A stretch of 64,000 nt of DNA from a virus. Below, in pieces: positions 5,030 through 16,248 of the stretch (position 1 is the stretch's first letter; the number at the start of each line of letters is the position of its first letter). Made by a program: the position numbers and the translations under genes. Location: positions 1-64,000 of IMG/VR virus record IMGVR_UViG_3300041402_000314. The stretch is one strand, 5' to 3'. The notes beneath the pieces are model-generated. The model had not been told where the DNA came from. It did not search any database and saw only the letters and a list, made by a program, of their open reading frames with translations.

Positions 5030-5035
5030 AATACT

Positions 5036-5230
5036 CTAACCTTTATAACCCAAGTGGGAGTCATATTCTTTACCTTCTTTCTTATTTTGTATTACGTATA
5101 TTTCGTGGGTACAAGACTCACAGCGATAGATAAATTTCAGGGGAGAGGTATAAATGGCTTCACCACTATACCTATATTCGGAACCACATTGACATTGGAT
5201 ATCTAACTTCTCTTCAACAGACATAAACAT
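5036..5230 (-). CDS. zinc-ribbon protein
   Basis: 64 aa with CQC (about 13-15) and CESC (about 37-40). Two ATGs (MFM...) are both near an AGGAG site. No specific family. Confidence 0.6.
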   Translation of the reverse strand: MFMSVEEKLDIQCQCGSEYRYSGEAIYTSPLKFIYRCESCTHEIYVIQNKKEGKEYDSHLGYKG

Positions 5231-5245
5231 TGCTCCTAATCAAAT

Positions 5246-5320
5246 TGGTAGGTGAGGTAGGATTCGAACCTACAATCATATCCTTATGAAAGATACAAGG
5301 CTGACCACAACCACACACCC
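5246..5320 (-). tRNA. tRNA with CAT anticodon (Met elongator or Ile2)
   Basis: 75 nt, CCA encoded; anticodon loop TTCATAA; canonical T-arm GTAGG/CCTAC with TTCGAAT loop. It lacks initiator features. Whether it reads ATG, or ATA after lysidine modification, cannot be settled here. Confidence 0.88.
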
Positions 5321-5330
5321 AAAAACATTT

Positions 5331-5413
5331 ATTCATCCTACACAACGGTTGTACTTACCGTCCCTCTAGCCCATGTGACGTATATACGTTAGAGTCCACA
5401 TCCTCGGAAGAAT
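5331..5413 (-). ncRNA. candidate structured RNA, stem-closed
   Basis: Ends ATTCTTCC/GGATGAAT pair with one mismatch. Inside are CTCTA/TAGAG around a self-complementary ACGTATATACGT, and ACGGT/ACCGT with a 7-nt loop. Sits between tRNA genes, has no reading frame and no CCA. Confidence 0.3.
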
Positions 5414-5425
5414 AAAATATCAAAA

Positions 5426-5500
5426 TGGTGGTCTTACCCGGAACCGAACCGAGATTTTGCGATTATCAGTCGCGTGTTCTTCCAGTTGAACTATAAGACC
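5426..5500 (-). tRNA. tRNA-Ile (GAT)
   Basis: 75 nt. Acceptor GGTCTTA/TAAGACC perfect, A73, CCA encoded, loop CTGATAA on a CGCGA/TCGCA stem. Confidence 0.93.
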
Positions 5501-5507
5501 GTAAATT

Positions 5508-5579
5508 TGGGAGCGAGGCCAGAAATCGAATCTGGGAATTCGGGATATGAACCCAAATGGAATACCAACTCTCCTCGCG
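5508..5579 (-). tRNA. initiator tRNA-fMet (CAT)
   Basis: 72 nt, CCA encoded. Two initiator hallmarks: base 1 (C) is unpaired against U72, and the anticodon stem ends in GGG/CCC around loop TTCATAT. The D-loop is short. Confidence 0.82.
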
Positions 5580-5591
5580 ACAATTATTATT

Positions 5592-5667
5592 TGGTACGCC
5601 TACGAGGACTCGAACCTCGATTCTAGGTTTAGAAGACCTATGCCTTATCCTGTTAGACGATAGGCGC
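5592..5667 (-). tRNA. tRNA-Arg (TCT)
   Basis: 76 nt. Acceptor GCGCCTA/TAGGCGT, CCA encoded, loop CTTCTAA on a TAGGT/ACCTA stem, canonical T-arm. Confidence 0.94.
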
Positions 5668-5677
5668 ACGATTATTT

Positions 5678-5822
5678 TGGTGTGAGTAGGGGGAATTAAA
5701 CCCATCATGCAACTACTAAGAGTGATCAAGCTCCTTTCGCCAACCTCCCTGCTTCGTCGCGAGAGCGCACATTGTATATGTCTCCCATTGTATCCACAGT
5801 GTACTACCTGTACTTTACCCAC
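5678..5822 (-). ncRNA. 145-nt tRNA-like RNA with CCA end
   Basis: The ends form a tRNA-type acceptor (GTGGGTA with TACTCAC, extendable by 2 bp), A73 and CCA, preceded by a T-arm-like hairpin with loop TTTAATT. A D-arm-like GTAC/GTAC hairpin follows the 5' acceptor. About 70 extra bases sit where the anticodon arm should be. Could be an interrupted tRNA, a pseudogene or a novel RNA. Confidence 0.45.
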
Positions 5823-5836
5823 ACATTTATTTTAAT

Positions 5837-5915
5837 GGGCGGTAAGTCTTGGCTCTTAACCGATGGCATATTCATACCTCCTCTTTAAAGTTGGTTGCAA
5901 ATGCACTTACCGCCC
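5837..5915 (-). ncRNA. candidate cloverleaf-like RNA without CCA
   Basis: 79 nt closed by an 11-bp perfect stem (GGGCGGTAAGT with ACTTACCGCCC). Inside are TGCA/TGCA, GGTAT/ATGCC with a 4-nt loop, and a short GG/CC hairpin. It also contains AGGAGG followed by ATG, so a tiny 21-codon frame cannot be excluded. Confidence 0.35.
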
Positions 5916-5925
5916 GATTTTATTT

Positions 5926-6001
5926 TTGTGCGTCTGGTGGGAGTCGAACCCACTACCGTTGGTTTTAGAAACCACGACTCTAGCCGTTGAGTTACAGACG
6001 C
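5926..6001 (-). tRNA. tRNA with CTA anticodon (amber-reading)
   Basis: 76 nt. Acceptor GCGTCTG/CAGACGC, D-stem ACTC/GAGT, T-arm GTGGG/CCCAC are all canonical. The anticodon loop is TTCTAAA, giving CTA, which reads UAG. The 3' end is ACAA, so CCA must be repaired. A 27-43 G-A mismatch is present. Confidence 0.8.
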
Positions 6002-6008
6002 GAACTAA

Positions 6009-6302
6009 TTAAATTAATCTCATACTCTTAAAATGATCATTGTTTCCAAGACTAGCTATAGCAGTCATTTGATCGCCTATATCAGGCTCTCTGAAACTTA
6101 TGTGACATATTCTATCACACTCCAACTTCTTTGTCAAGCTAATTAATTCGTTCTCGTCTCTAATACTTAAATAGACTAGGGTTCCGTTATCCCAATCAGT
6201 GTCGCGGTTGCGAAGGACATACTCAGCTAAAGCATGACCTCCCTGTACCGCCTGTTGGGATTTACTTAAGTCCTTACGCACCACAACATACAGCTTCTTC
6301 AT
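6009..6302 (-). CDS. peptidyl-tRNA hydrolase, Pth2 type
   Basis: 97 aa, shorter than the usual 115-120. VVVRKDLSKSQQAVQGGHA matches the N-terminal Pth2 motif, and FREPDIGDQMTAIA matches its C-terminal catalytic part. Pth2 releases peptides from peptidyl-tRNA. Placement inside a tRNA island supports a role in recycling or protecting tRNAs. Its start lies inside the end of the 6274-6567 gene. Confidence 0.82.
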   Translation of the reverse strand: MKKLYVVVRKDLSKSQQAVQGGHALAEYVLRNRDTDWDNGTLVYLSIRDENELISLTKKLECDRICHISFREPDIGDQMTAIASLGNNDHFKSMRLI

Positions 6303-6567
6303 TTACTACCTCCCTTGGCTCTATGCTCATCTTTATTTGATTAACATAGGTCATGTTTGGAGCATTACCATTCCGAATATCAGATTCAATTTCTTCCATT
6401 GATCTACCTCTCAGAAGGCAATAAGCTATATGGTGATGCCTAGCTTCGTATCTAAGCCTCAGAAGACCTTCTACGTAGCCATATTCAGACCCTTTTCTGA
6501 GTCCTTTCTTTTCTTTGATCTCTTTAGCGAGACCTTTAATATGTTGCTTTAATTCTATAAATTTCAT
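6274..6567 (-). CDS. unknown phage protein
   Basis: 97 aa, basic helical N-terminal half (MKFIELKQHIKGLAKEIKEK). The second ATG is chosen because GGAG lies 6 bases upstream. I think similar proteins occur in T4-like phages; no function known. Overlaps the Pth2 start. Confidence 0.65.
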   Translation of the reverse strand: MKFIELKQHIKGLAKEIKEKKGLRKGSEYGYVEGLLRLRYEARHHHIAYCLLRGRSMEEIESDIRNGNAPNMTYVNQIKMSIEPREVVNEEAVCCGA

Positions 6568-6639
6568 GTTGTTCTCCATCGTTAAGGTTAAAGATATAGT
6601 TAAATTTCCATATACCCTTACTCTGGAGGACTTCTTTCA

Positions 6640-6804
6640 TTATAACTCTAAAGCATTATTTTCTCCTTTTAAAAGTTTGTTGATCGCTTCTTTAGCTTCA
6701 GCGAGTTTCTTAACATCCGAAAGCTCATCTAAAGACTCTTGTAATTCCTTTGAAAAACTGTATGTAGCGGAATCTGGATATGTGCTTACTTTAGGTCTAA
6801 ACAT
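6640..6804 (-). CDS. 54-aa unknown protein
   Basis: Starts MFRPKVSTYPDSATYS and is followed by a charged helix (KELQESLDELSDVKKLAEAKE). Complete frame ending in TAA. No family recognised. Confidence 0.5.
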   Translation of the reverse strand: MFRPKVSTYPDSATYSFSKELQESLDELSDVKKLAEAKEAINKLLKGENNALEL

Positions 6805-6962
6805 CGTTTATTCCTCTTGTATTTTATACCTTTCCAGAATTCACAATTTTTACCGCTATCGATATCGGTTCTACAATCATGATACTCACATATACCGCTA
6901 TTACCTTTCATATGTTTCATTCTGGTAAAATCTATACAATTTCCACAATTTTTACGTTTCAT
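6786..6962 (-). CDS. Cys-rich zinc-binding small protein
   Basis: 58 aa from MKRKNCGNCIDF; cysteines in CGNC, CEYHDC and NCEFW, a likely single zinc site. This ATG overlaps the end of the gene before; an outer TTG is also possible. Confidence 0.6.
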   Translation of the reverse strand: MKRKNCGNCIDFTRMKHMKGNSGICEYHDCRTDIDSGKNCEFWKGIKYKRNKRCLDLK

Positions 6963-7167
6963 ATGAACTTTTGATATGAACGATATCCTCAAGAAATGTA
7001 TTTTCTTTACCGTTGAAATAATTAGCAGCGTTTGTTACGGCTTTAATCATAGCTTCATCATCACCTCTACAAGGATAACCTCCTTCAATATGTTTGTTAA
7101 TTTCTTTTAATATTACATCCAACTCTTCTAACTGTGATTCTGTTATTTCATCATTGCTTATATCCAT
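6952..7167 (-). CDS. unknown acidic protein
   Basis: 71 aa, starting MDISNDEITESQLEELDV. Mostly helical by composition. First gene after tRNA (7187-7261). No family recognised. Confidence 0.55.
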   Translation of the reverse strand: MDISNDEITESQLEELDVILKEINKHIEGGYPCRGDDEAMIKAVTNAANYFNGKENTFLEDIVHIKSSYET

Positions 7168-7186
7168 AACACAATTCCTTAAATTT

Positions 7187-7261
7187 TGGTAGCGAAGATC
7201 GGATTCGAACCGATGATTCTCGCCTTATGAGGACGATGAGATGACCACTTCTCTACTTCGC
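7187..7261 (-). tRNA. tRNA with CAT anticodon (Met elongator or Ile2)
   Basis: 75 nt, CCA encoded. Loop CTCATAA on a TCGTC/GGCGA stem; T-arm ATCGG/CCGAT. Not an initiator: base 1 is G and paired. Confidence 0.88.
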
Positions 7262-7274
7262 GACATTTAATTGT

Positions 7275-7499
7275 TTATTTATTTTCACTTAACCAAGATA
7301 GAAATTTTTGTAAAAGTTCTTTATTTATACTCCATTCAGTACCTTGATATCCTATTTGTTCCTCTTCATCATCTAAAGTATCTAAATATTCTAATACTTT
7401 AAGAGACACATAATTATTAGAATATTTTTTTATATCCATCTCTACATGATCAGCATATACATCTAAAATTTTTAACTTTTTCTTATCTTTAGCTTTCAT
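7275..7499 (-). CDS. unknown protein
   Basis: 74 aa, lysine-rich start (MKAKDKKKLKILDV), acidic middle (DTLDDEEEQIG). No family recognised. Confidence 0.55.
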   Translation of the reverse strand: MKAKDKKKLKILDVYADHVEMDIKKYSNNYVSLKVLEYLDTLDDEEEQIGYQGTEWSINKELLQKFLSWLSENK

Positions 7500-7521
7500 A
7501 ATAAACTCCCATCAATTAGAT

Positions 7522-7622
7522 TGTCGAATGCGAGACCAGCCTGTGAAGTCTTCCACCATCAAGGTTGCTTAAACTCGCGTTTTCAGGCTTGTATCCAAGG
7601 TGCTGATTTTGAGTTTTCGACA
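7522..7622 (-). ncRNA. candidate stem-closed RNA
   Basis: 101 nt bounded by TGTCGAA/TTCGACA, a perfect 7-bp pair. Inner possibilities are AGCCTG/CAGGCT, CTTG/CAAG and GTGGAAG/CTTCAC. No coding frame. With the next element it fills the gene-free gap 7500-7738. Confidence 0.3.
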
Positions 7623-7638
7623 AAATTTAATTATAGAG

Positions 7639-7738
7639 AGAGAGTAGGGATTTACTGGAGAGGATTTCCATGCTGTCCATATAACCCTCGAAGTGGCTCT
7701 CAATACCTCTTTATATTCGTATCTTCACCCTGCCCTCT
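7639..7738 (-). ncRNA. candidate stem-closed RNA
   Basis: 100 nt whose ends (AGAGGGCAGGG and CCCTACTCTCT) pair over 11 positions with one wobble and one mismatch. Starts right after the HNH gene stop. No coding frame. Confidence 0.28.
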
Positions 7739-8253
7739 TAATATACTCCTAAATCCTTAAGCATCTGGTTTATACCAAGACTCTCATGGTACTTCTTGAT
7801 GAATTGGCTGATAGTTGGTTGTTTTGGTTCATAACCTCTTTCAATGAAATGCATACCAGCTTCACTTAAGGACATATCACCTTTATAGCTGTTACACTTT
7901 TTACATGAACATACGGTATTCTCGAAAGTATTCTTACCACCTCTAGCTCTCGGAATAACATGATCTATATTAAGCTTTGACCTTCTATCTTCAGGACAAT
8001 AAACACAGGTGAAATTATCCCTCACCATAACATTTCTCTTAGTCCATACAACAGCTCTCTTATAGATACACTTGATAAGATAAACCAGTCTAATTACAAT
8101 AGGTGTCTTATACTCTTCAGAAAATGAACGTACTACTTCATCATCAGAATGCTTTACTACTTCGACTTTACCTTTAGCCATGTAGTGAAGAGCTTTCTTC
8201 AAAGACACTTTATTCAAAAAAGTGTAATCGTAGTTTAATAATATTACGTTCAT
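7738..8253 (-). CDS. HNH endonuclease
   Basis: 171 aa. Zinc-HNH core about residues 80-130: FTCVYC, then NIDHVIPRARGGKNTFENTV and CKKCNSYKGD. The N-terminal 60 residues are family-specific. A late promoter (8271-8278) and AAGGAAAG ribosome site precede it. Probably a free-standing homing endonuclease; a restriction-like role cannot be excluded. Confidence 0.85.
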   Translation of the reverse strand: MNVILLNYDYTFLNKVSLKKALHYMAKGKVEVVKHSDDEVVRSFSEEYKTPIVIRLVYLIKCIYKRAVVWTKRNVMVRDNFTCVYCPEDRRSKLNIDHVIPRARGGKNTFENTVCSCKKCNSYKGDMSLSEAGMHFIERGYEPKQPTISQFIKKYHESLGINQMLKDLGVY

Positions 8254-8270
8254 CGTACTTTCCTTTTAAT

Positions 8271-8278
8271 TATTTATA
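8271..8278 (-). promoter_or_regulatory. T4-type late promoter
   Basis: Leftward TATAAATA followed by ATTAAAAGG, about 18 bases before the HNH gene ATG at 8253. Confidence 0.7.
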
Positions 8279-8288
8279 TCTTCTAAAA

Positions 8289-8365
8289 TGGTGAGACTGA
8301 ACGGATTTGAACCGCTGACGCTCTGCTCTTCAAGCAGACGCTCTACCAGACTGAGCTACAATCCC
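8289..8365 (-). tRNA. tRNA-Phe (GAA)
   Basis: 77 nt, CCA encoded. Acceptor GGGATTG/CAGTCTC with wobble pairs; anticodon stem TCTGC/GCAGA, loop TTGAAGA. Confidence 0.93.
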
Positions 8366-8370
8366 ATTGT

Positions 8371-8428
8371 ATATTTAATTACGTATCCGTAGTGCCATAA
8401 ATGTCAATATAGATACGTAATTAAATAT
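8371..8428. repeat. 17-bp perfect inverted repeat
   Basis: Arms 8371-8387 and 8412-8428 are exactly complementary (17 bp, rich in AT), separated by 24 bases. It lies between tRNA-Phe and tRNA-Arg. Likely an RNA hairpin that separates or protects the two tRNAs; no T-run, so not a classical terminator. Confidence 0.85.
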
Positions 8429-8429
8429 A

Positions 8430-8507
8430 TGGAACCCTTAGAGAGATTCGAACTCTCGCATGTCTGACGTTCGTAGCGTCACGCTCTGTCCACTGAGCTA
8501 TAAGGGC
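8430..8507 (-). tRNA. tRNA-Arg (ACG)
   Basis: 78 nt. Acceptor GCCCTTA/TAAGGGT, CCA encoded, stem TGACG/CGTCA with loop CTACGAA. Confidence 0.93.
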
Positions 8508-8515
8508 AAAAAAAT

Positions 8516-8579
8516 AATCTGGTGGCAATATTAACGACCTTTGCTCTTATTATCGGGACGGTCAAGCGAGAACCAGATT
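8516..8579 (-). ncRNA. stem-closed RNA with trailing T-run
   Basis: AATCTGGT/ACCAGATT (8 bp, perfect) closes a 48-nt interior that holds GACC/GGTC. The strand continues with ATTTTTTT. Either an unusual terminator after the 67-aa gene or a small RNA. Confidence 0.35.
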
Positions 8580-8782
8580 TATTTACTTTTTTTCAAACAC
8601 GTTTTACATTTTTTAATTTTCAGATCATCATGTCCTATTCCATAATCGCCATTTTTCCAAAGTTCTTCCTTGAAAACAGAACATTTATCAAAACTACTTA
8701 GCTGCGAACAGGCGGTTTCATTAGATTTAATTCTACAATAATCGCCATCTGGTACTTCGATATCAACATTTATAATCATCAA
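8579..8782 (-). CDS. small Cys protein, paralogue of 24794-24997
   Basis: 67 aa. The pattern VPDGDYCRI ... CSVF ... LWK ... KKCKTCL repeats in the gene at 24794-24997 (VPDGKLCRS ... CILF ... LWK ... FKCKECL). Probably one zinc-binding fold. Function unknown. Confidence 0.65.
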   Translation of the reverse strand: MMIINVDIEVPDGDYCRIKSNETACSQLSSFDKCSVFKEELWKNGDYGIGHDDLKIKKCKTCLKKSK

Positions 8783-8801
8783 TCATCTCTCTTTAAAAAA
8801 T

Positions 8802-8875
8802 TGGTCGATCTTGCGGAGTTTAACCGCTCATCCAAACCCTCACGGTAAGGTATGCTGACGTTACATTAAAGACCG
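8802..8875 (-). ncRNA. 74-nt divergent tRNA-like RNA, CCA end
   Basis: Exact tRNA length. Acceptor CGGTCTT/AAGATCG, A73 and CCA; GCGG/CCGC hairpin with loop TTAAACT at the T-arm position; ATG/CAT D-stem whose loop lacks GG. The anticodon arm is weak with no U33 (a CGT triplet is central). A degraded or highly divergent tRNA. Confidence 0.5.
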
Positions 8876-8881
8876 ATAAAT

Positions 8882-9139
8882 TTATTGAGCTATACCAAGA
8901 ACACTTTCAAGATTACCTTTGAGACTCGAAGCCATATTCTTAGCAGCTTCAAGAGTAGTATTAGAATTCTTTACTTCTGTTTCGAGAATAGCAAGCTCTT
9001 CTTTCGCAATATCCACTCTCTGGTTGTTGGCATCGATCACCTGATCAACCTCACCCATACCCTTATTCAAATCGGTAATATCGGTTTTAATCCTCTCTAC
9101 TGTCTTTTCAATCCTAGCCAAACCTTTTTTCTCAAACAT
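8882..9139 (-). CDS. coiled-coil protein
   Basis: 85 aa, nearly all heptad-like helix (EKTVERIKTDITDLNKGM, then AKEELAILETEVKNS). No catalytic residues seen. Function unknown; it resembles small phage coiled-coil proteins in general composition only. Confidence 0.6.
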   Translation of the reverse strand: MFEKKGLARIEKTVERIKTDITDLNKGMGEVDQVIDANNQRVDIAKEELAILETEVKNSNTTLEAAKNMASSLKGNLESVLGIAQ

Positions 9140-9682
9140 TTATAACTCCTCCATTTTTGGTTTATACTGCGTTTTACGAAACTTTTTCCAACACCTATTA
9201 TTATAATCCGATCTACAAACATCATCCCAAGAAGTAGGAAGTCGTCCTCTACCTCTCTTCTTCCTAATATACTTCTTATCATATACACTTTCTATGATGG
9301 CTTGCCTAGTCTTGGGATGTCTATAATACTTTCCATAACCACCCTTTCCTACGAAAGGAACAGGACCATTTCTGAATCCAAGGTAATTTTTGCTTCTAGC
9401 GAGTCTCGACCAATACTTCCTTTCAGGCTTTTTATACTTTTCAATAGCTTCCTCAATTACATAGGTCTGAACTACTCTGTTCATACTATCCAAGACAATG
9501 TAATCTACTGGAATTCTCTCATATACATATCCTATATCATAATAGTTAGTCCCTCTGGTATAAGTATCATTAAAATTGTTACCTATACCATGCATACCAA
9601 TACATGAAATAAGATGTTCAAATGACTCGTATTCTCGAAAGTTATTCTCTCGATCAATCAGGTAATGCTTGTTATTTTTCAT
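9140..9682 (-). CDS. unknown basic protein under hairpin control
   Basis: 180 aa with many Tyr, Arg and Lys (ends KKFRKTQYKPKMEEL) and a KKRGRGRLPTSWDD stretch. Nucleic-acid binding is a guess from charge. The start codon lies in one arm of a 10-bp inverted repeat (9680-9718), and a 9-codon leader frame ends in the other arm. No family recognised. Confidence 0.6.
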   Translation of the reverse strand: MKNNKHYLIDRENNFREYESFEHLISCIGMHGIGNNFNDTYTRGTNYYDIGYVYERIPVDYIVLDSMNRVVQTYVIEEAIEKYKKPERKYWSRLARSKNYLGFRNGPVPFVGKGGYGKYYRHPKTRQAIIESVYDKKYIRKKRGRGRLPTSWDDVCRSDYNNRCWKKFRKTQYKPKMEEL

Positions 9683-9718
9683 TTTCTAGTCTCCTTTTAT
9701 AGGTTTAACTAGAAAATG
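9680..9718 (-). promoter_or_regulatory. start-codon-masking hairpin with leader peptide
   Basis: CATTTTCTAG (9680-9689) and CTAGAAAATG (9709-9718) pair perfectly over 10 bp. The arm holds the ATG of the 180-aa gene; the AGGAGA ribosome site is in the loop. A 9-codon frame MKRFEKDIF (9709-9738), with its own AAGGAAAGG site, stops in the other arm. Confidence 0.6.
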
Positions 9719-9758
9719 TCTTTTTCGAACCTCTTCATATCCTTTCCTTTCTTTTAAT

Positions 9759-9766
9759 TATTTATA
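9759..9766 (-). promoter_or_regulatory. T4-type late promoter
   Basis: Leftward TATAAATA followed by ATTAAAAG, upstream of the leader peptide and the 180-aa gene. Confidence 0.65.
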
Positions 9767-9767
9767 T

Positions 9768-9825
9768 TGGGGCGAAGGTCAACCTTTCGGTCATTTTTAC
9801 ACTGGTGATCTGCCAGTCCTCCGCC
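9768..9825 (-). ncRNA. 58-nt armless tRNA-like RNA, CCA end
   Basis: Acceptor GGCGGAG/CTTCGCC then C and CCA. Only two inner hairpins: ACTGG/CCAGT with 7-nt loop CAGATCA (A instead of U at position 33), and ACC-GAAA-GGT, a GNRA tetraloop. No D-arm or normal T-arm. Too short for a usual tRNA. Confidence 0.5.
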
Positions 9826-9833
9826 ATAATTTT

Positions 9834-9909
9834 TGGCGACCTTGAGGGGAATCGAACCCCTAACCTATTCGCAGACAACGAACTGCTCTTCCATTTGAGC
9901 TACAAGGCC
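9834..9909 (-). tRNA. tRNA-Asp (GTC)
   Basis: 76 nt. Acceptor GGCCTTG/CAAGGTC, G73, CCA encoded, loop TTGTCTG on GTTCG/CGAAT. Confidence 0.93.
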
Positions 9910-9927
9910 ATTTAATTTATTAAAGCT

Positions 9928-9956
9928 ATTATACCAAATTCAGTTTTGTTTGTCAA
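9928..9956 (-). promoter_or_regulatory. sigma-70-type promoter
   Basis: TTGACA (9951-9956), 17 bp, TATAAT (9928-9933), leftward. Points straight into tRNA-Asp, so it is a tRNA promoter. Confidence 0.88.
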
Positions 9957-9964
9957 GCTTTATT

Positions 9965-10270
9965 TTATATATTTTGCATTTGTTTTAAAGTTTTTCTTCT
10001 ATTTTTAATCCTTTTTATAAGTTCTTCAAATCTAATAATTTCTTCTACGAATGGTAATCTATCGCCTTTTTCTGCATTACATTTTTTATGAGCTAATACA
10101 TGATTGTATCTAAGTACCTTTCCCATTTTATATTTTTTAGCTACAAAATGATCTACTGTATATCCTCGGTTCCTACCTTTATTTTTAGCAAGCCACATAG
10201 GATTACCACAGTAAAAACATTCGCCTTGTTGCGCCATCATAAGTTCCATATGATATCCAGCTAATTCCAT
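9965..10270 (-). CDS. small HNH endonuclease
   Basis: 101 aa. CFYCG, then YTVDHFVAKKY and NHVLAHKKCNAEKGD give a compact zinc-HNH site. Start MELAGYHMELMM is chosen for its AAGGAG site. Has its own promoter (10300-10328). Homing or nicking endonuclease, target unknown. Confidence 0.78.
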   Translation of the reverse strand: MELAGYHMELMMAQQGECFYCGNPMWLAKNKGRNRGYTVDHFVAKKYKMGKVLRYNHVLAHKKCNAEKGDRLPFVEEIIRFEELIKRIKNRRKTLKQMQNI

Positions 10271-10299
10271 AATTTTCTCCTTCTTTGAATTATGAACCA

Positions 10300-10328
10300 A
10301 TCATAACATGGAGAAAACTATTTGTCAA
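10300..10328 (-). promoter_or_regulatory. sigma-70-type promoter
   Basis: TTGACA (10323-10328), 17 bp, TATGAT (10300-10305), leftward, 30 bases before the HNH gene start. Confidence 0.75.
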
Positions 10329-10343
10329 GAACTTTTTTTATTT

Positions 10344-10417
10344 TGGATGAGGTAGATGGATTCGAACCATCATTAACTCATTCAGAGTGAGTCGTCTTAC
10401 CATTGGACTATACCCCA
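10344..10417 (-). tRNA. tRNA-Gln (CTG)
   Basis: 74 nt. Begins U1-A72 (TGGGGTA/TACCTCA) as Gln tRNAs do; loop CTCTGAA on ACTCA/TGAGT; CCA encoded. Confidence 0.92.
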
Positions 10418-10428
10418 AAATTTTATTT

Positions 10429-10502
10429 TGGTGGAGATTAGGGGAGTCGAACCCCTTCAAAATCAGTGCAAATGATTTTCGCATCCCGATGCATCAATCC
10501 CC
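10429..10502 (-). tRNA. tRNA-Ala (TGC), overlapping a CDS end
   Basis: 74 nt. Acceptor GGGGATT/AATCTCC, A73, CCA; loop TTTGCAC on AATCA/TGATT. The last ~21 codons and stop of the P-loop gene (10438-11040) are read through this tRNA. Confidence 0.9.
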
Positions 10503-11040
10503 AAAATTTCCTTATTTCCATTTTCTTTATTATGTCTTCAGCCAGTAAATCGATTCCTTCATCAGTTCCACCATCATATTCTACCACACTGATCTCATGT
10601 TTGTCAAGAAGTTTTCTCAGATTTTTATCAATATCTTTCGATTCATCTTCTGTCTGCATCCTACCTATAGGATTATACTCTTTGACTCTCTTCAGGAAGA
10701 CATTCATGGTTTCAAATGAATGATGTGCCTCCATTATAAGAGTATCTAAAGCCTTTCCTACTGTTGTCTTATCCCTGTTGTAATATAGGGATAGAAGCAG
10801 CGGAGAATCGGTTATAACAACATCTACTTGACCATTTAGCCTGAATACCTTATGATGTTGTTTAGCAAATACATATATCTGGTTATCGAAGATCGCTTCA
10901 TGTCTATCCCAGACCTTATCTTTAGCATATTCACTAACATATTCAGCATTAATACCAGCCTGTTTCAACTTACTAAATACACCTGTAGCAGTAGTTGATT
11001 TACCACAACCCGGACCACCAAACAGATTAATCAATAGCAT
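10438..11040 (-). CDS. P-loop ATPase/kinase (AAA_28 or NadR-like)
   Basis: 200 aa. Walker A GGPGCGKST at about residues 8-16, VVITDSPLL as Walker B region, LKRVKEYNPIGR as a lid-like segment. This layout is shared by NadR-type ribosylnicotinamide kinases and a common phage ATPase family; substrate is not certain. Start is the ATG 3 bases inside an outer TTG, with AGGA upstream. The C-terminal ~21 residues are encoded by the tRNA-Ala gene, so the true functional end may be earlier. Confidence 0.75.
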   Translation of the reverse strand: MLLINLFGGPGCGKSTTATGVFSKLKQAGINAEYVSEYAKDKVWDRHEAIFDNQIYVFAKQHHKVFRLNGQVDVVITDSPLLLSLYYNRDKTTVGKALDTLIMEAHHSFETMNVFLKRVKEYNPIGRMQTEDESKDIDKNLRKLLDKHEISVVEYDGGTDEGIDLLAEDIIKKMEIRKFWGLMHRDAKIICTDFEGVRLP

Positions 11041-11230
11041 CAAAAAATCCTATTCTTTCGGCTTGGTCATCAGTTATAGGAAGAACATTAATTAAAAAGA
11101 TTGTACTACTATCACTTTTCTCTTCTTCCACTCTCTCCAGAAACTCTATCGGACATTTTTCAATAGAGCTACCATATTTACCACCATCATCAAATAGAGC
11201 ATTCTGACAATAATATGTTATCAAATACAT
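11027..11230 (-). CDS. unknown protein
   Basis: 67 aa from MYLITYYCQNALFDD; AAGGAG 7 bases upstream fixes the start. Ends overlapping the P-loop gene start. No family recognised. The 113 bases upstream hold only fragments of a frameshifted Cys-rich frame. Confidence 0.6.
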   Translation of the reverse strand: MYLITYYCQNALFDDGGKYGSSIEKCPIEFLERVEEEKSDSSTIFLINVLPITDDQAERIGFFDAID

Positions 11231-11343
11231 ATCAAACTCCTTATTCAAAAATCGTTATACCACAATCCTTACATGCCTTATAATCGAGAGAACCATTCAT
11301 AGACAACACTCTGACTTTATTGAGGTGCTTACAAAAAGCTAGT

Positions 11344-11604
11344 CTATATATCCTCCTCATCGCTGTTATTAGTCTTCTCATAGTCTGCCACCGCCTTTAA
11401 AAAAGTTTCATAAGAATACATTCTACCACTATGTTTACTATCTGGATACATTACTTGTCCAGTTACCGTATACAATCTAGGTGATTTTTGATCTAAATAT
11501 TTCTTCGCTTCAATCATCCGTTTTATCAATTCTTCTTGAAACTCTTTACCAGTTTCTTCGCCAAATACTTTCAAGAGTTCTTCTTCAGAATCAATTACTT
11601 TCAT
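11344..11604 (-). CDS. unknown protein
   Basis: 86 aa, starting MKVIDSEEELLKVFGEETGK, helical, with an acidic end. Ends in TAG; overlaps the gene upstream by 4 bases. No family recognised. Confidence 0.55.
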   Translation of the reverse strand: MKVIDSEEELLKVFGEETGKEFQEELIKRMIEAKKYLDQKSPRLYTVTGQVMYPDSKHSGRMYSYETFLKAVADYEKTNNSDEEDI

Positions 11605-11813
11605 TTCCCTTCAGCAATCAGATTCAAATGCTTTCTAATGTACCTCATGAAAAGAAGAGCTTTATCTTCCTCTAAGAAAGTAGCAGTTCCAGTATCTTCT
11701 ATAGGTACAGGAAACTCAAAACCACATTCGGTTACATACCATAGATTCAAGTCCTTATAACGCTGAAATTTAACTACTTTATTGTCTTTTACCATGTCTT
11801 TAATAATGCTCAT
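11601..11813 (-). CDS. unknown protein
   Basis: 70 aa (MSIIKDMVKDNKVVKFQRYKD). Overlaps its downstream neighbour by 4 bases, so the two are probably coupled. No family recognised. Confidence 0.55.
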   Translation of the reverse strand: MSIIKDMVKDNKVVKFQRYKDLNLWYVTECGFEFPVPIEDTGTATFLEEDKALLFMRYIRKHLNLIAEGK

Positions 11814-11820
11814 ATTTTCC

Positions 11821-12075
11821 TCACTTAACTATCTTTAAATGTCGTTCATTCTTTATCTTCTGTTTAAGATCGAGTGTATAAAAATATTCGACCATTTCAT
11901 CTACAAAGTCTGGGTCTCTCATCACCCTATCCATAATACTTATAGCTAAAATACTAGGCATCGGACTTGTGCCGTTTTCTTTCTCTTCGGCAGTGGGTTT
12001 TGGTATATGAGAATGAACCCTTCCATTCGTCTTAAAAATTACCGCTGTATCGCCATTTTCCAGATAAATACTCAT
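11821..12075 (-). CDS. unknown protein
   Basis: 84 aa (MSIYLENGDTAVIFKTNGRV) with an N-terminal beta region and helical end. ATG overlaps the TGA of the gene before (ATGA). No family recognised. Confidence 0.58.
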   Translation of the reverse strand: MSIYLENGDTAVIFKTNGRVHSHIPKPTAEEKENGTSPMPSILAISIMDRVMRDPDFVDEMVEYFYTLDLKQKIKNERHLKIVK

Positions 12076-12314
12076 AACAAATCCTGTCCTAGATCACATT
12101 TATCTTTTCTATACTTTTTGTTAAATTTCCACTTACAATCGATATATCTTTTTCTAAATCTAGCTTTGAGACCTACATGAATTGGTAGACCAAAACATAA
12201 TAGTGAATATCTTTTATATGCTTTTTGACTATATTTACCTATACCTATCATAAATAAAATAGAATAGAACTTTTTAACTCCATGAAGATATAAACTTAGA
12301 AAGTAATCATTCAT
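12072..12314 (-). CDS. unknown basic protein
   Basis: 80 aa from MNDYFLSLYLHGVKKF, rich in Lys, Arg and aromatic residues, one possible membrane-facing segment (FYSILFMIGIG). The frame is open further upstream into tRNA-His, but that part is not credible. Confidence 0.5.
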   Translation of the reverse strand: MNDYFLSLYLHGVKKFYSILFMIGIGKYSQKAYKRYSLLCFGLPIHVGLKARFRKRYIDCKWKFNKKYRKDKCDLGQDLL

Positions 12315-12336
12315 AACAAACCTATATTCAAATTTT

Positions 12337-12410
12337 TGGGGTGAAGCCGGGAATCGAACCCTAGTCTCCTGATTCACAGTCAGGCATTCTGCCACTGAAC
12401 TAGCAACACC
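12337..12410 (-). tRNA. tRNA-His (GTG)
   Basis: 74 nt including the His-specific extra G(-1) opposite C73. Loop CTGTGAA on CCTGA/TCAGG; CCA encoded; two T-T mismatches in the acceptor. Confidence 0.9.
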
Positions 12411-12417
12411 ATAATTC

Positions 12418-12678
12418 TTAAATTTCTTTTATTGTTATCTCTACTTCAACTGCTTCCATATCCTTTTTAGTAAGTTTTTTACCTGATCTATCCCAAAACC
12501 AGTTACCAAGAAAACCTGCTTCAGCTTTCTTCTTTGTGTTATAGGTAAGAACTCTTTTCTTATCAGTCTTATCATCTACCAATATAAGTTCTCTATTCCT
12601 CGGAACGCCTTTGGCTATAACAGTCTTGTCTTGATTCATTATAATCCATTTTCTTTCAGTATATTCAAACTTATCCAT
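12418..12678 (-). CDS. unknown protein
   Basis: 86 aa (MDKFEYTERKWIIMNQDKTV); beta-rich, with GNWFWDRSGKKLTKKD in the second half. I have seen similar short phage proteins but no function. Confidence 0.58.
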   Translation of the reverse strand: MDKFEYTERKWIIMNQDKTVIAKGVPRNRELILVDDKTDKKRVLTYNTKKKAEAGFLGNWFWDRSGKKLTKKDMEAVEVEITIKEI

Positions 12679-12694
12679 TCATCAAACTCCTAAT

Positions 12695-12868
12695 TTAATC
12701 TTCTAACAATCTACATATTTTCTTAAATTTTTCTTTATTTACATAAACTATTCTTTCATCATCAGAAAGATAAATACCTATTGTTTGATTTCTGATTTCT
12801 ATATTCAGGGTCTTACCCTCACAATCAGTATTATAACTATCTTCAACAATATTAAGCTTTACTTCCAT
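12695..12868 (-). CDS. unknown protein
   Basis: 57 aa from MEVKLNIVEDSYN (AGGAG 7 bases upstream). Short beta-rich protein ahead of the 86-aa gene. No family. Confidence 0.52.
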   Translation of the reverse strand: MEVKLNIVEDSYNTDCEGKTLNIEIRNQTIGIYLSDDERIVYVNKEKFKKICRLLED

Positions 12869-12893
12869 GATCAAACTCCTAATCAATTAATTT

Positions 12894-12968
12894 TGGAAGC
12901 CCTACTCAGATTTGAACTGAGACGATAAGGTTCAAAACCTTACATGCTAACCATTACATTATAGGGCA
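12894..12968 (-). tRNA. tRNA-Gln (TTG)
   Basis: 75 nt, CCA encoded. Loop TTTTGAA on TAAGG/CCTTA; T-arm CTCAG/CTGAG. Base 1 appears to be T and unpaired. Confidence 0.88.
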
Positions 12969-12978
12969 TCATTTATCT

Positions 12979-13011
12979 CTATCGCGACATTTATCACGTC
13001 ATTTTGTCGCG
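12979..13011. repeat. 9-bp inverted repeat
   Basis: ATCGCGACA (12979-12987) and TGTCGCGAT (13003-13011) pair perfectly around 15 bases. Just downstream of the 43-aa membrane gene; may be a 3' end or processing hairpin. Confidence 0.6.
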
Positions 13012-13015
13012 ATTA

Positions 13016-13147
13016 TTATATTACCACAAGAAAAAATATTATCATAATTATAGAAATTAACCACATCAATCCATCTATTTCACCGAGCGTATCATCACAT
13101 ATCATTTCAAGTTCAGGCCACTCAATTTCTTCATCGGTCTTTTCCAT
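13016..13147 (-). CDS. 43-aa C-tail-anchored membrane protein
   Basis: Acidic N-terminus MEKTDEEIEWPELEM, then a single C-terminal hydrophobic helix ending IIMIIFFLVVI. Complete frame, TAA stop. Function unknown. Confidence 0.5.
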   Translation of the reverse strand: MEKTDEEIEWPELEMICDDTLGEIDGLMWLISIIMIIFFLVVI

Positions 13148-13165
13148 AATTTTCCTATTTTATAG

Positions 13166-13233
13166 TTGGGTGGTGTCTCGCAACTTAGTCATCAGAGTGT
13201 CTTAATCGCTTTGTCTAACACTTTCTCACCCAA
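13166..13233 (-). ncRNA. candidate stem-closed RNA
   Basis: 68 nt closed by TTGGGTG/CACCCAA (7 bp, perfect), with AGTGT/ACACT inside. Lies between a small gene and tRNA-Leu, no frame, no CCA in the right place. Confidence 0.3.
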
Positions 13234-13257
13234 GCAGTTAGATTGCTTTATATTTTT

Positions 13258-13341
13258 TGGTAGGAGAGGAGGGATTTGAACCCTCAATCCCGAAGGCACT
13301 GGTTCCTAAGACCAGCGTGTATTCCGTTCCACCACCCTCCC
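13258..13341 (-). tRNA. tRNA-Leu (TAG)
   Basis: 84 nt, long variable arm. Acceptor GGGAGGG/CCTCTCC, CCA, stem CTGGT/ACCAG, loop CTTAGGA. Confidence 0.94.
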
Positions 13342-13348
13342 ACATATT

Positions 13349-13645
13349 TTATATCTCTATCGGTTCTGGTAAATCAACATTATTCATAGATATCGCTTTA
13401 GCTTCACCAGTCTTTAAATTAACTTCGATCTCAAATGATATTTCGAATCCAGTACGGCAGAAATTATCAAGAGCCTTTCCACTTAAGCCCATTTCCTTGC
13501 CATTATTATAATTTCCATCTCCATCTGAATGAACAAAAAATGTAGTTTTAACTTTCTCTACTATTTCTAATTCACCACCACATTCTGGACAGAAATTAAA
13601 CTTCTCTACCTGTACAACTTCACAAAATCTACACCACTTAGACAT
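13349..13645 (-). CDS. zinc-ribbon protein
   Basis: 98 aa from MSKWCRFCEVVQVEKF; CRFC and CPECGG form a zinc ribbon at residues 5-22, followed by a beta-rich domain. GAGG 8 bases upstream. Function unknown. Confidence 0.65.
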   Translation of the reverse strand: MSKWCRFCEVVQVEKFNFCPECGGELEIVEKVKTTFFVHSDGDGNYNNGKEMGLSGKALDNFCRTGFEISFEIEVNLKTGEAKAISMNNVDLPEPIEI

Positions 13646-13667
13646 AATCAAACCTCTATTCAAATTT

Positions 13668-13757
13668 TGGTAGGAGTAGTCGGACTCGAACCGACAAGGG
13701 CGCATACGTCCCGCGAGATTTTAAGTCTCGTGTGTATACCAATTCCACCATACTCCC
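13668..13757 (-). tRNA. tRNA-Leu (TAA)
   Basis: 90 nt, long variable arm, CCA encoded. Stem CGAGA/TCTCG with loop CTTAAAA. Confidence 0.94.
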
Positions 13758-13771
13758 ACATATATTTTATT

Positions 13772-14023
13772 TTAATTAGCTGGTTCAGGCTTTTCTTGCC
13801 AATGGGTTACATTCCAACCCCAATTATATTCTTTCCATGTTTCAAAGTCAAACCATATTTGTTTATTGGCATCAAACCACAACATCATTACTTCTGGGTC
13901 ATCGTTTGGGTCTCTATGACCATCATCGAGTTCGACAGTGACAATATACTCACCAATAACATTCCAATGTTTATTCTTTTCTAAAGGCAATCTATCTTTA
14001 ACTGATATCCAATTACTTTCCAT
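13772..14023 (-). CDS. DUF551-domain protein
   Basis: 83 aa. WISVKDRLPLEK at the start and THWQEKPEPAN at the end are the two conserved blocks of DUF551, widespread in phages. Function unknown. Confidence 0.8.
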   Translation of the reverse strand: MESNWISVKDRLPLEKNKHWNVIGEYIVTVELDDGHRDPNDDPEVMMLWFDANKQIWFDFETWKEYNWGWNVTHWQEKPEPAN

Positions 14024-14041
14024 TTCAATCCTTTAGTTTTA

Positions 14042-14116
14042 TGGTCAAGGCGGGGAGATTCGAACTCCCACTTCATGTTCCCAAAACATGGGTGCTACCA
14101 TTAACACTACGCCAAG
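14042..14116 (-). tRNA. tRNA-Pro (TGG)
   Basis: 75 nt, C1-G72 as in Pro tRNAs, CCA encoded; loop TTTGGGA on CATGT/ACATG. Confidence 0.91.
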
Positions 14117-14401
14117 AAATTTAGAGCTACTTTATCACGACATGATTAGAACCACCTGATCTGTTTCGATCAATTTCACTCAAGGTATCGTACTTGCTTC
14201 TACTGGTTAGGTTTCCGCACTCTTATACCTAAATCTTTTTAATTTAACAACTGAGGATGGTTAGTCCTCCCGATATAGCCTTCATTGATCACCATTCAAT
14301 CCATCAGCCAAGTTTTCTCTCTTCTTATCCGCTAAGATAAAAATACTCTTCTTTATACAGTCCTTACCGTACCATCGGCTATTGTCAAAAATCTTTTAAG
14401 T
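14117..14401 (-). other. 285-bp gene-free stretch with hairpins
   Basis: No credible reading frame. Small inverted repeats: GAGGA/TCCTC around a 7-nt loop (14253-14269), ATTGA/TCAAT around a 7-nt loop (14284-14300), TTAGGT/ACCTAA (14207-14232). Probably one or more further structured or decayed tRNA-like RNAs. Confidence 0.35.
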
Positions 14402-14486
14402 TGGCTCCAGCGGTAGGATTCGAACCTACATAGTCCTTTCGGACAGTGATTAACAGTCACCTGCATTGCCAATCTGCCACGCTGGA
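14402..14486 (-). tRNA. tRNA-Asn (GTT) with extended variable arm
   Basis: 85 nt. Acceptor TCCAGCG/CGCTGGA, G73, CCA; loop CTGTTAA on GTGA/TCAC. The variable region holds a GTCC-GAAA-GGAC hairpin, unlike normal short-arm Asn tRNAs. Confidence 0.88.
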
Positions 14487-14497
14487 ACATATATTTT

Positions 14498-14585
14498 TGG
14501 TCTCGCGATCTGGATTCAAACCAGAATCTCCTGTCAGTGTTTTGTCATATTTTGGCTCATCAGCCTTTAATTAAACTACCACGAG
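14498..14585 (-). ncRNA. degenerate tRNA-like RNA, CCA end
   Basis: 88 nt. Acceptor CTCGTGG/TCGCGAG, A73, CCA. T-arm TCTGG/CCAGA with loop TTTGAAT. The D-loop lacks GG, and no clear anticodon arm can be drawn (GGCT/AGCC leaves only 4 loop bases). Confidence 0.5.
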
Positions 14586-14601
14586 ACATATTTTATATTT
14601 T

Positions 14602-14684
14602 TGGTTGTCCGAGTAGGAATTGAACCTACTAATCAGAGGCGGTTATACCGTCATTCCTCGTTTACCCACCACATGGGACGGACA
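14602..14684 (-). ncRNA. tRNA-like RNA with enlarged anticodon arm
   Basis: 83 nt. T-arm GTAGG/CCTAC with loop TTCAATT and CCA are normal; D-type stem CCCA/TGGG. The anticodon position has GAGG/CCTC around 16 bases that contain CGG/CCG, so the anticodon is unclear (ATA possible). Confidence 0.5.
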
Positions 14685-14702
14685 ACATATTTTATTTTAT
14701 TT

Positions 14703-14735
14703 GCCAGTGTACAACAATTATACTCGCTAACTGGC
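14703..14735 (-). repeat. 6-bp hairpin
   Basis: GCCAGT/ACTGGC around 21 bases, in the gene-free gap between two tRNA-like genes. Confidence 0.35.
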
Positions 14736-14772
14736 TACCGAGAGTTTAGAGTCACGACAAGCAAAATAAAAT

Positions 14773-14842
14773 CATATGAGCCAGCTTGTCGCGAATCTTT
14801 GCATTGTTGTCAACGAACGATTAATCAATGACGGCTCATATG
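14773..14842 (-). ncRNA. candidate stem-closed RNA
   Basis: 70 nt closed by a perfect 10-bp stem, CATATGAGCC/GGCTCATATG. The interior contains GTCA/TGAC and has no reading frame. Confidence 0.4.
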
Positions 14843-14861
14843 CAGAAAAACTTTATATTTT

Positions 14862-14932
14862 TGGTGGGTGTGGATGGATTTGATACCATCATTTCTCTGT
14901 ACATAGTGCCTTCAATCTTAGACGACACACCC
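14862..14932 (-). ncRNA. 71-nt tRNA-like RNA lacking an anticodon arm
   Basis: Acceptor GGGTGTG/CACACCC perfect, A73, CCA. D-stem GTCT/AGGC, loop without GG. T-stem GATGG/CCATC with an 8-nt loop (TATCAAAT). Only 17 bases remain between D- and T-arms, too few for an anticodon arm plus variable loop. Confidence 0.5.
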
Positions 14933-14945
14933 ATAACTTTTTATT

Positions 14946-15281
14946 TTAAGATGTAATTAGTTCAACTATCTTCTTAAAATAATCTTTGGATATAGAATCA
15001 AATCCTATTTCATCCATCCTTTCCACCAAATCATATTTATTAGTTGTTACATACTGAGCTAAATTACAGTGGAAGTCATCACAACCTTCACCGAACAATA
15101 CAAATCCCATTTGCCCGAACTCACCATCATCTATTCGGCTCATTATCTCGTATTTTAAATCAAACTCTTCTGGAAAGTCGATATATCTCTTTGTCGCATA
15201 TTTTATCGACATATTTTTCAATACTTCGAATGTATATCTTTTAAAAACATAATTCCAAATTCTATCAAATCTAGCGATCAT
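14946..15281 (-). CDS. unknown protein
   Basis: 111 aa (MIARFDRIWNYVFKRYTFEV), mixed alpha/beta with one FGEGCDDFHC segment. No family recognised. Between tRNA-Trp and a tRNA-like gene. Confidence 0.58.
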   Translation of the reverse strand: MIARFDRIWNYVFKRYTFEVLKNMSIKYATKRYIDFPEEFDLKYEIMSRIDDGEFGQMGFVLFGEGCDDFHCNLAQYVTTNKYDLVERMDEIGFDSISKDYFKKIVELITS

Positions 15282-15302
15282 AAACTTTCCTCAATAATAT
15301 TT

Positions 15303-15377
15303 TGGCAGGTCGCCAAGGACTTGAACCCTGATTCTCGGCATTGGAAACCGATGCTCTACCAATTGAACTAACGACCC
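15303..15377 (-). tRNA. tRNA-Trp (CCA)
   Basis: 75 nt. Acceptor GGGTCGT/GCGACCT, G73, CCA; loop TTCCAAT on TCGGT/GCCGA. Confidence 0.93.
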
Positions 15378-15386
15378 ACATTTTAA

Positions 15387-15578
15387 TTACTCTTCTCTTA
15401 CTATCTTAAATCCTTTTACCTTTTGTATATCTGGAATGAGGCTTTTGGAATATATTAATCTCCATGTTCCATCACCAACCTTTTCTATATTGATCATCTC
15501 AATTTTAGTATCGATCTCTACTACCTTGGAAAGCTCCAATACTTTCCCTATTCCTTCTATCTCAATGCTTCGCTTCAT
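15387..15578 (-). CDS. unknown protein
   Basis: 63 aa (MKRSIEIEGIGKVLELSKV), beta-rich. Overlaps the end of the gene upstream. No family. Confidence 0.52.
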   Translation of the reverse strand: MKRSIEIEGIGKVLELSKVVEIDTKIEMINIEKVGDGTWRLIYSKSLIPDIQKVKGFKIVREE

Positions 15579-15777
15579 ATTCTTTTATCTTCCTAGCTAC
15601 TAGACTTGGTTTAACTGGATATTCGCCTATCGTATCTCCATATTCGCCATCTGATAATTCAAACAATATTTTCTTATCTTTCCAGACTTTTAACGTATGC
15701 CCTTCCCAATAATCTTGAATACTCCAAGCATATTTAACACCGTCTACAACAATATCCCTAAACTTCTTTTTAGCCAT
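15562..15777 (-). CDS. unknown protein
   Basis: 71 aa (MAKKKFRDIVVDGVKYAW), beta-rich N-terminus. Overlaps both neighbours, which favours it being real. No family. Confidence 0.55.
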   Translation of the reverse strand: MAKKKFRDIVVDGVKYAWSIQDYWEGHTLKVWKDKKILFELSDGEYGDTIGEYPVKPSLVARKIKEYEAKH

Positions 15778-15919: not shown

Positions 15920-15926
15920 AACACCT

Positions 15927-15955: not shown

Positions 15956-15960
15956 GCATA

Positions 15961-16002: not shown

Positions 16003-16021
16003 AGAGTTATGTATATTATTA

Positions 16022-16246: not shown

Positions 16247-16248
16247 TA

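What the first reader, a model, noticed from the sequence alone, without database searches (positions are those of the whole stretch)
5678..14932. A family of tRNA-like RNAs with CCA-acceptor ends but aberrant or missing anticodon arms
Six genes (5678, 8802, 9768, 14498, 14602, 14862) keep matched 7-bp acceptor stems and an encoded CCA. Yet one is 58 nt with no D- or T-arm, one lacks room for an anticodon arm, one has a 145-nt body, and others have enlarged or mispaired anticodon arms. Pure decay would also break acceptor pairing, so selection on the acceptor/CCA end is suggested. They could act as decoys for tRNA-cutting defences, as aminoacylated RNAs outside decoding, or as primers.
Basis: partly seen in the sequence, partly recalled or inferred. 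Interest (0 to 1): 0.85.

Follow-up and report, generated by a model that had tools for sequence, protein, structure and literature searches.

The report
Phage tRNA-like RNAs lacking working anticodons
A large bacteriophage carries, beside about 35 ordinary tRNA genes, several tRNA-shaped RNAs that keep the amino-acid-bearing end but lack a usable decoding end, and at least one of them belongs to a phage-specific class found in unrelated viruses, so it is probably a real molecule with an unknown job rather than random decay.

Summary
The window is part of a 204-kb T4-like phage contig with about 35 tRNA genes on the minus strand (2916-26742). All six reported elements do have a 7-bp acceptor pairing and an encoded CCA. 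They are not one family. Element 14862-14932 is the strong one. It has two paralogues elsewhere in the same genome (198,579-198,654 and 198,808-198,880) and relatives in about 15 unrelated viral contigs, with no convincing relative in 257 Gb of bacterial and archaeal genomes. The class shares an 8-nt T-loop UAUCAARU, a D-loop without G18G19, and acceptor and T stems that covary. Its anticodon arm is absent, shortened, enlarged or lacks U33 in nearly all members. A model built without the window copy finds it at 55.9 bits; ordinary tRNAs score at most about 43. Elements 14602, 14498 and 8802 keep acceptor and T-arm but have broken decoding halves and no relatives, so decay is not excluded. 9768 (58 nt) and 5678 (145 nt) are weaker. 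Decoys for anticodon nucleases are unlikely without an anticodon loop; decoys for acceptor- or CCA-directed defences fit better but are untested. One class member resembles Rfam skipping-rope RNA, a possible known relative.

The parts
14862..14932 (-). anticodon-less tRNA-like RNA, 71 nt with CCA (14862-14864), A73 at 14865; member of the UAUCAARU T-loop class
   Evidence: R1 model built without it: 55.9 bits, E 5.5e-11; two paralogues in the genome; class covariation
14926..14932 (-). 5' acceptor strand GGGTGTG, pairs with CACACCC at 14866-14872
14908..14923 (-). D-arm GTCT-AAGATTGA-AGGC; loop without GG
14891..14907 (-). 17-nt stretch ACTATGTACAGAGAAAT where an anticodon arm should be; no stem of 3 bp or more found
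14873..14890 (-). T-arm GATGG-TATCAAAT-CCATC with 8-nt loop
14602..14686 (-). tRNA-like RNA with canonical T-arm (GTAGG-TTCAATT-CCTAC); anticodon arm replaced by GAGG-16 nt-CCTC with inner CGGT-ATA-ACCG
   Evidence: z -3.2; no tRNA relative found
14498..14585 (-). tRNA-like RNA, 7-bp acceptor, T-arm TCTGG-TTTGAAT-CCAGA, D-loop without GG, no recognisable anticodon arm
   Evidence: R1 only 26.5 bits, like ordinary tRNAs
8802..8875 (-). tRNA-like RNA, 7-bp acceptor, 4-bp T-stem with loop TTAAACT, D-arm resembling that of the tRNA-Gln at 12894 but without GG, mispaired anticodon arm
9768..9825 (-). 58-nt three-way-junction RNA: 8-bp closing stem, hairpin ACTGG-CAGATCA-CCAGT, hairpin GACC-GAAA-GGTT, ends CCA
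   Evidence: z -3.4
5678..5822 (-). 145-nt candidate: acceptor GTGGGTA/TACTCAC, D-arm GTAC-AGGTA-GTAC, weak T-arm, CCA; weakest of the six
   Evidence: z 0.04
2916..26742 (-). phage tRNA array holding the elements
15927..15955 (-). sigma-70-type promoter TTGACA-17-TATAAT, upstream of 14862-14402
   Evidence: consensus match only

Best explanation
Element 14862 is a member of a phage-specific class of tRNA-like RNAs that keep the top half of a tRNA (acceptor stem, CCA, T-arm) and a D-stem but have given up decoding. Shown: sequence class, covarying stems, lack of a canonical anticodon arm in nearly all members, altered D- and T-loops, viral distribution. Inferred: it is transcribed with the array, cut by RNase P, ends in CCA and accumulates. 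Most likely function, not shown: it works through its acceptor/CCA/T-arm end as a decoy or sponge for acceptor-end-directed enzymes (CCA-tail nucleases such as Cas12a3, CCA-modifying toxins); lacking an anticodon loop, it would stay out of the ribosome and escape anticodon nucleases. The other five elements are a mixed set: 14602, 14498 and 8802 are tRNA derivatives with intact ends and broken decoding halves, possibly the same phenomenon or decay; 9768 is a small three-stem RNA; 5678 is doubtful.
For: Two paralogues in the same genome, found by a scan for acceptor+T-stem+CCA. IMG/VR scans return class members in about 15 contigs; the genome-contig scan (257 Gb) returns none with a full T-stem and full acceptor. 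Acceptor and T pairs: 97-99% paired, 6 of 7 acceptor pairs changed on both sides, covariation 0.92-0.95 against 0.23-0.26 shuffled and at most 0.19 slid. Held-out recovery of the window copy and others, the best of them above ordinary tRNAs. Non-decoding anticodon arm in 9 of 12 class members against 23 of 247 ordinary tRNA genes (p 4e-7), D-loop without GG 11 of 12 against 45 of 247 (p 2e-7). An apparently broken member (L187) has its exact acceptor partner 150 nt away. B and C, adjacent in one locus, differ by compensatory changes at 3 acceptor pairs and 1 T pair. The phage encodes a CCA-adding enzyme, an Rnl2-type RNA ligase, RlaP and PTH2, which suggests tRNA conflict. Cas12a3 engages tail, acceptor and T-arm, and removing tRNA loops does not stop cleavage (PMC12851939).
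Against: No expression data. Class members carry D-arms resembling different isoacceptors (Glu-, Leu-, Met-like), so part of the acceptor covariation may be inherited from different functional parents rather than maintained after loss of decoding. One member (L154) has a canonical CAU anticodon loop, and L276 and L204 are close to tRNA-Glu. The class was gathered through its T-loop and CCA, so those features are fixed by the search, and in some members the acceptor start was chosen by best pairing. No defence system or toxin is known for this host. No orthologue close enough to measure selection on the window copy itself.
Confidence: 0.35

Rival explanations
1. Relaxed selection and decay: redundant phage tRNA genes lose anticodon and D-loop function first, and intact acceptors are either recent leftovers or an ascertainment effect, since genes with broken acceptors are not recognised.
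For: The array covers all 20 amino acids with canonical tRNAs, so extra copies are dispensable. 14602, 14498, 8802, 9768 and 5678 have no relatives. In cousin phages L106/L127 a shared tRNA-like gene has a poorly paired acceptor in one and none found in the other.
Against: For the 14862 class: the same unusual T-loop and GG-less D-loop recur in many phages with all acceptors paired and covarying, and two paralogues share the non-decoding form in one genome with compensatory changes.
Confidence: 0.3
2. Aminoacyl donors outside translation: the RNAs are charged by a synthetase that ignores the anticodon and feed a non-ribosomal reaction, as Staphylococcus tRNA-Gly isoacceptors do.
For: Loss of G18G19 parallels the non-proteinogenic Staphylococcus tRNA-Gly, where GG is replaced by UU or CU (PMC4052509). 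A73 and CCA are kept in the three own copies.
Against: No G3-U70 alanine signal in the three own copies (pairs G-C, G-C, A-U). No aminoacyl-transferase was found, though the genome was not searched exhaustively. D-arms resemble several isoacceptors and N73 varies across the class.
Confidence: 0.15
3. Processing punctuation: the acceptor/T-arm minihelix is only an RNase P (and 3' processing) signal that cuts polycistronic transcripts, like t-elements of plant mitochondria (recalled from memory).
For: Elements lie between genes in a long array; RNase P needs little more than acceptor and T-arm (established knowledge).
Against: Some class members in other contigs have no tRNA genes within several kb. 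Encoded CCA and D-arm are not needed for punctuation. Ordinary tRNAs already punctuate the array.
Confidence: 0.1
4. A Y-RNA-like or skipping-rope-like regulatory RNA that binds a dedicated protein.
For: Class member L158 matches Rfam skipping-rope RNA (RF02924) at 30.4 bits, E 1.6e-6, and tRNA at 32.3 bits. Copies B and C lie upstream of a conserved phage protein of unknown function (phrog_1735).
Against: Below the skipping-rope gathering score (36.7); the window copy and its paralogues do not match. No TROVE/Ro60 in the genome. No R1 match near phrog_1735 in 8 other phages, apart from ordinary tRNAs in one.
Confidence: 0.1

Closest known systems
Rfam skipping-rope RNA (RF02924)
   Same: Consensus has a closing 8-bp stem, a D-arm-like stem, a short central hairpin and a T-arm-like stem; one class member (L158) matches end to end at E 1.6e-6.
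   Different: L158 is below the gathering score; 14862, B, C and the other members do not match; the consensus has a 9-nt loop and no UAUCAARU.
Phage tRNAs with altered anticodon loops that evade VapC-type nucleases (van den Berg 2023, PMC10264068)
   Same: Phage tRNA arrays with changed anticodon loops, plausibly from tRNA-directed conflict.
   Different: Those remain decoding tRNAs; these lack a usable anticodon loop.
tmRNA tRNA-like domain
   Same: Acceptor, T-arm and CCA without an anticodon arm (established knowledge).
   Different: No mRNA-like part at 71-75 nt and no G3-U70; RF00023 has no match at these loci in its own genome.
Bacterial YrlA Y RNA tRNA mimic (Ro60 partner)
   Same: tRNA-shaped RNA outside decoding, reported in some phages (PMC7765460).
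   Different: No Ro60/TROVE in the genome; these have a free CCA end.
Non-proteinogenic Staphylococcus tRNA-Gly
   Same: G18G19 replaced (PMC4052509).
   Different: It keeps a canonical anticodon arm and 7-nt T-loop (recalled).

Membership tests
functional elongator tRNA (RF00005) | 5-bp anticodon stem with 7-nt loop and U33 | tested here: not met
   14862: 17 nt between D and T stems, no stem; 14498 none; 14602 16-nt loop; 8802 mispaired
functional elongator tRNA (RF00005) | covariance-model score at or above gathering (29 bits) | tested here: not met
   no RF00005 hit at any of the six
functional elongator tRNA (RF00005) | 7-bp acceptor and CCA end | tested here: met
UAUCAARU tRNA-like class (defined here) | acceptor pairs + 8-nt UAUCAARU T-loop + GG-less D-loop + CCA | tested here: met
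   14862 at 55.9 bits from a model not containing it; the other five elements lack the 8-nt loop
skipping-rope RNA (RF02924) | score at or above gathering 36.7 bits | tested here: not met
   no match in own genome at E up to 10; L158 30.4 bits
YrlA / Ro60 Y RNA | Ro60 (TROVE) partner in genome | tested here: not met
   PF05731 absent from the 204-kb contig, control rings; the contig may be incomplete
tmRNA | RF00023 match with mRNA-like domain | tested here: not met
   matches in own genome fall only on ordinary tRNAs
acceptor-end decoy | binding to or protection from a CCA/acceptor-directed enzyme | not testable with these tools
   needs biochemistry

The most novel reading that the evidence does not exclude
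Unrelated phages carry a widespread, virus-specific class of CCA-ended tRNA-like RNAs without decoding ability (UAUCAARU T-loop, GG-less D-loop) that are kept as decoys for acceptor-end-directed immunity or as charged RNAs outside translation, and Rfam skipping-rope RNA is a relative of this class.
Probability: 0.2. Interest if true: 0.85.

Novelty: new variant of a known kind. Interest (0 to 1): 0.6.

Why it matters
Phage tRNA arrays are explained by codon supply or by evasion of anticodon nucleases. RNAs that keep the acceptor/CCA end and discard decoding fit neither and point to conflict or chemistry at the other end of tRNA. With CCA-tail-cutting immunity now reported (Cas12a3, PMC12851939), the idea is directly testable. 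Standard gene finders (ARAGORN, Rfam tRNA) miss most of these genes, so they may be under-counted in phage genomes.

Tried and rejected
No close relative of the phage: megablast of the array against GenBank phages empty, DNA polymerase, UvsX and terminase searches give at best about 40-44% identity. Pattern for 14602 in IMG/VR gave five matches, none in a tRNA context. Pattern for the GGCAGTT T-arm returned mostly non-tRNA sequence plus three jumbo-phage tRNA arrays. TAG recoding with the amber suppressor tRNA: coding density rises no more than with TGA as control. I first read 5678 as having a broken acceptor; the longer span restored it. An association of class RNAs with phrog_1735 was not found in 8 phages, and its profile finds no solved structure. 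Short BLAST for class T-arms in GenBank phages gave mainly ordinary tRNAs, judged from one-base gaps in the alignment lengths.
Full report
Setting. The window is the first 64 kb of a 204,149-bp IMG/VR virus contig. It encodes T4-type DNA polymerase and terminase at 35-41% identity to cyanophages and others, and no near relative was found. All tRNA genes but one lie on the minus strand at 2916-26742: 28 by ARAGORN, others by Rfam and two by my own scan (24727 Gly-TCC, 18350 Glu-TTC). By my reading of the anticodons the set covers all 20 amino acids.

Observation. All six elements have a 7-bp acceptor (6-8 bp for 14602 depending on register) and an encoded CCA. Neither ARAGORN nor RF00005 calls them. 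Acceptor plus CCA alone is close to chance. With an abutting T-type stem, four uncalled elements stand against 1.1 expected from the rest of the genome and 0.34 from shuffles. 14602 missed that cut only through its T-T mismatch; its T-arm score is within the canonical range.

The key step. The background hits contained two further tRNA-like RNAs, at 198,579-198,654 (C) and 198,808-198,880 (B), with the same 8-nt T-loop TATCAA[AG]T as 14862 (A). A stricter form of the first pattern, run on 257 Gb of bacterial and archaeal contigs, gave no hit with full T-stem and full acceptor.

Is the class real? Acceptor and T pairs form in 97-99% of cells; 6 of 7 acceptor pairs change on both sides; the covariation score is 0.92-0.95 against 0.23-0.26 in shuffles and at most 0.19 when slid. 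A covariance model from seven sequences without the window copy finds it at 55.9 bits, E 5.5e-11, and other held-out members at 37-51 bits. Ordinary tRNAs reach 43 bits at most (L381:716-790, TTCAAAT loop). The weaker members therefore overlap ordinary tRNAs in score; the window copy and its paralogues do not (the paralogues were in the training set). The one member that seemed to have lost its acceptor (L187) has an exact 7-bp partner 150 nt upstream.

Decoding ability. In a heuristic parse of 259 tRNA-type genes in held arrays, an anticodon arm compatible with decoding was missing in 9 of 12 genes with the 8-nt T-loop and in 23 of 247 with 7-nt loops (p 4e-7); the D-loop lacked GG in 11 of 12 against 45 of 247 (p 2e-7). 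Reading members by hand, only L154 has a canonical arm (CAU). Arms range from nothing (A) through 3-6-bp stems with 3-6-nt loops (B, L158, L184, L165, L170, L176) to 18-nt loops (L162) and bodies of 110-150 nt (L208, L160, L187).

Caveat on selection. Members carry D-arms resembling tRNA-Glu, tRNA-Leu or others, so some of the covariation could be inherited from different decoding parents. The best counter-evidence is B and C: neighbours in one locus, sharing D-loop AAGTTA, the GCGAT linker and the T-loop, both without a canonical anticodon loop, yet differing by compensatory changes at three acceptor pairs and one T pair.

Context. The genome encodes a CCA-adding enzyme (L004:5332-6651), an Rnl2-type RNA ligase (window 27453-28511), a PTH2-like protein (6009-6302) and an RlaP nucleotidyltransferase (L010:18604-19494). 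B and C lie downstream of a consensus sigma-70 promoter at 199,086 and upstream of a 669-aa protein of family phrog_1735, whose relatives are in 500 GenBank phage records. Eight such records show no class RNA beside that gene, and there is no TROVE/Ro60 gene, so a Ro60-Y RNA arrangement is not supported.

Function. Nothing here shows function. Decoys for anticodon nucleases are unlikely without an anticodon loop. Acceptor-end decoys fit the anatomy: Cas12a3 engages tail, acceptor and T-arm, and removing tRNA loops does not stop cleavage (PMC12851939). A non-translational aminoacyl donor is an alternative; loss of G18G19 parallels the non-proteinogenic staphylococcal tRNA-Gly (PMC4052509). Decay remains the main rival for 14602, 14498, 8802 and 5678.

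Known kinds. Class member L158 matches Rfam skipping-rope RNA (RF02924) over its whole length at 30.4 bits, E 1.6e-6, below the gathering score, and the same RNA matches RF00005 at 32.3 bits. The skipping-rope consensus has a tRNA-like layout and is reported to contain a pseudoknot (PMC7779021). This is a lead that the class touches a described RNA family; the window copy itself does not match it. I therefore call it a new variant of a known kind.

Noticed in passing
window 17606-17680, 20403-20476, 18350-18427: tRNA-Lys(TTT), Val(TAC) and Glu(TTC) have T-loops GGCAGTT, GGCAGTA, GTCAGTA instead of TTCRANY, the first two with a D-loop AG in place of GG; the same combination is in unrelated jumbo phages (L106, L127, L107), and a similar T-loop in Vibrio phage phiKT1024 tRNA-Thr. 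A recurrent non-canonical tRNA elbow.
   Followed up: partly
window 18350-18427: tRNA-Glu(TTC) missed by ARAGORN and Rfam, with a run of eight G in the T-stem (possible three-base insertion).
   Followed up: no
window 14402-14486 and 17693-17779: Class II (long variable arm) tRNAs with Asn (GTT) and Met (CAT) anticodons; with G73 and A73 they might be charged with serine and leucine.
   Followed up: no
window 5928-6001: Amber-suppressor-type tRNA (CTA) without encoded CCA; no sign of TAG recoding in the genome.
   Followed up: partly
L107, L106, L127, L384: Other phage arrays hold tRNAs with GG-less D-loops paired with T-loops TGCAAAT, TGCGAGT or TTTGAAT, most with normal anticodon arms.
   Followed up: partly
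window 7515-7625, 7640-7740, 8515-8582, 13165-13245, 5836-5914, 14695-14855; genome 198,660-199,320: Further intergenic elements closed by long inverted repeats; some could form crossing stems. No convincing Rfam match in the window ones; possible additional small RNAs.
   Followed up: no
L010:13738-15747 (genome 196,538-198,547): 669-aa protein of phrog_1735 (unknown function), 38-54% identical in Ackermannviridae, Vequintavirinae, phiCbK and others; no Pfam, NCBIfam or PDB match.
   Followed up: partly
L358:1504-1584 (G016:2750-2830): RNA matching both Rfam tRNA and skipping-rope RNA, suggesting that skipping-rope RNA may be a tRNA-like molecule.
   Followed up: partly
L382:12735-12813 (Pseudomonas phage Milchi): tRNA-like gene in a cultured phage with intact acceptor, GG-less D-loop and a 13-nt anticodon loop (GCGG-13-CCGC); a tractable relative of the phenomenon.
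   Followed up: no
L005:4865-4981 (genome 88,665-88,781): Lone Rfam tRNA hit outside the array, 117 nt long, with an insertion of about 30 nt.
   Followed up: no
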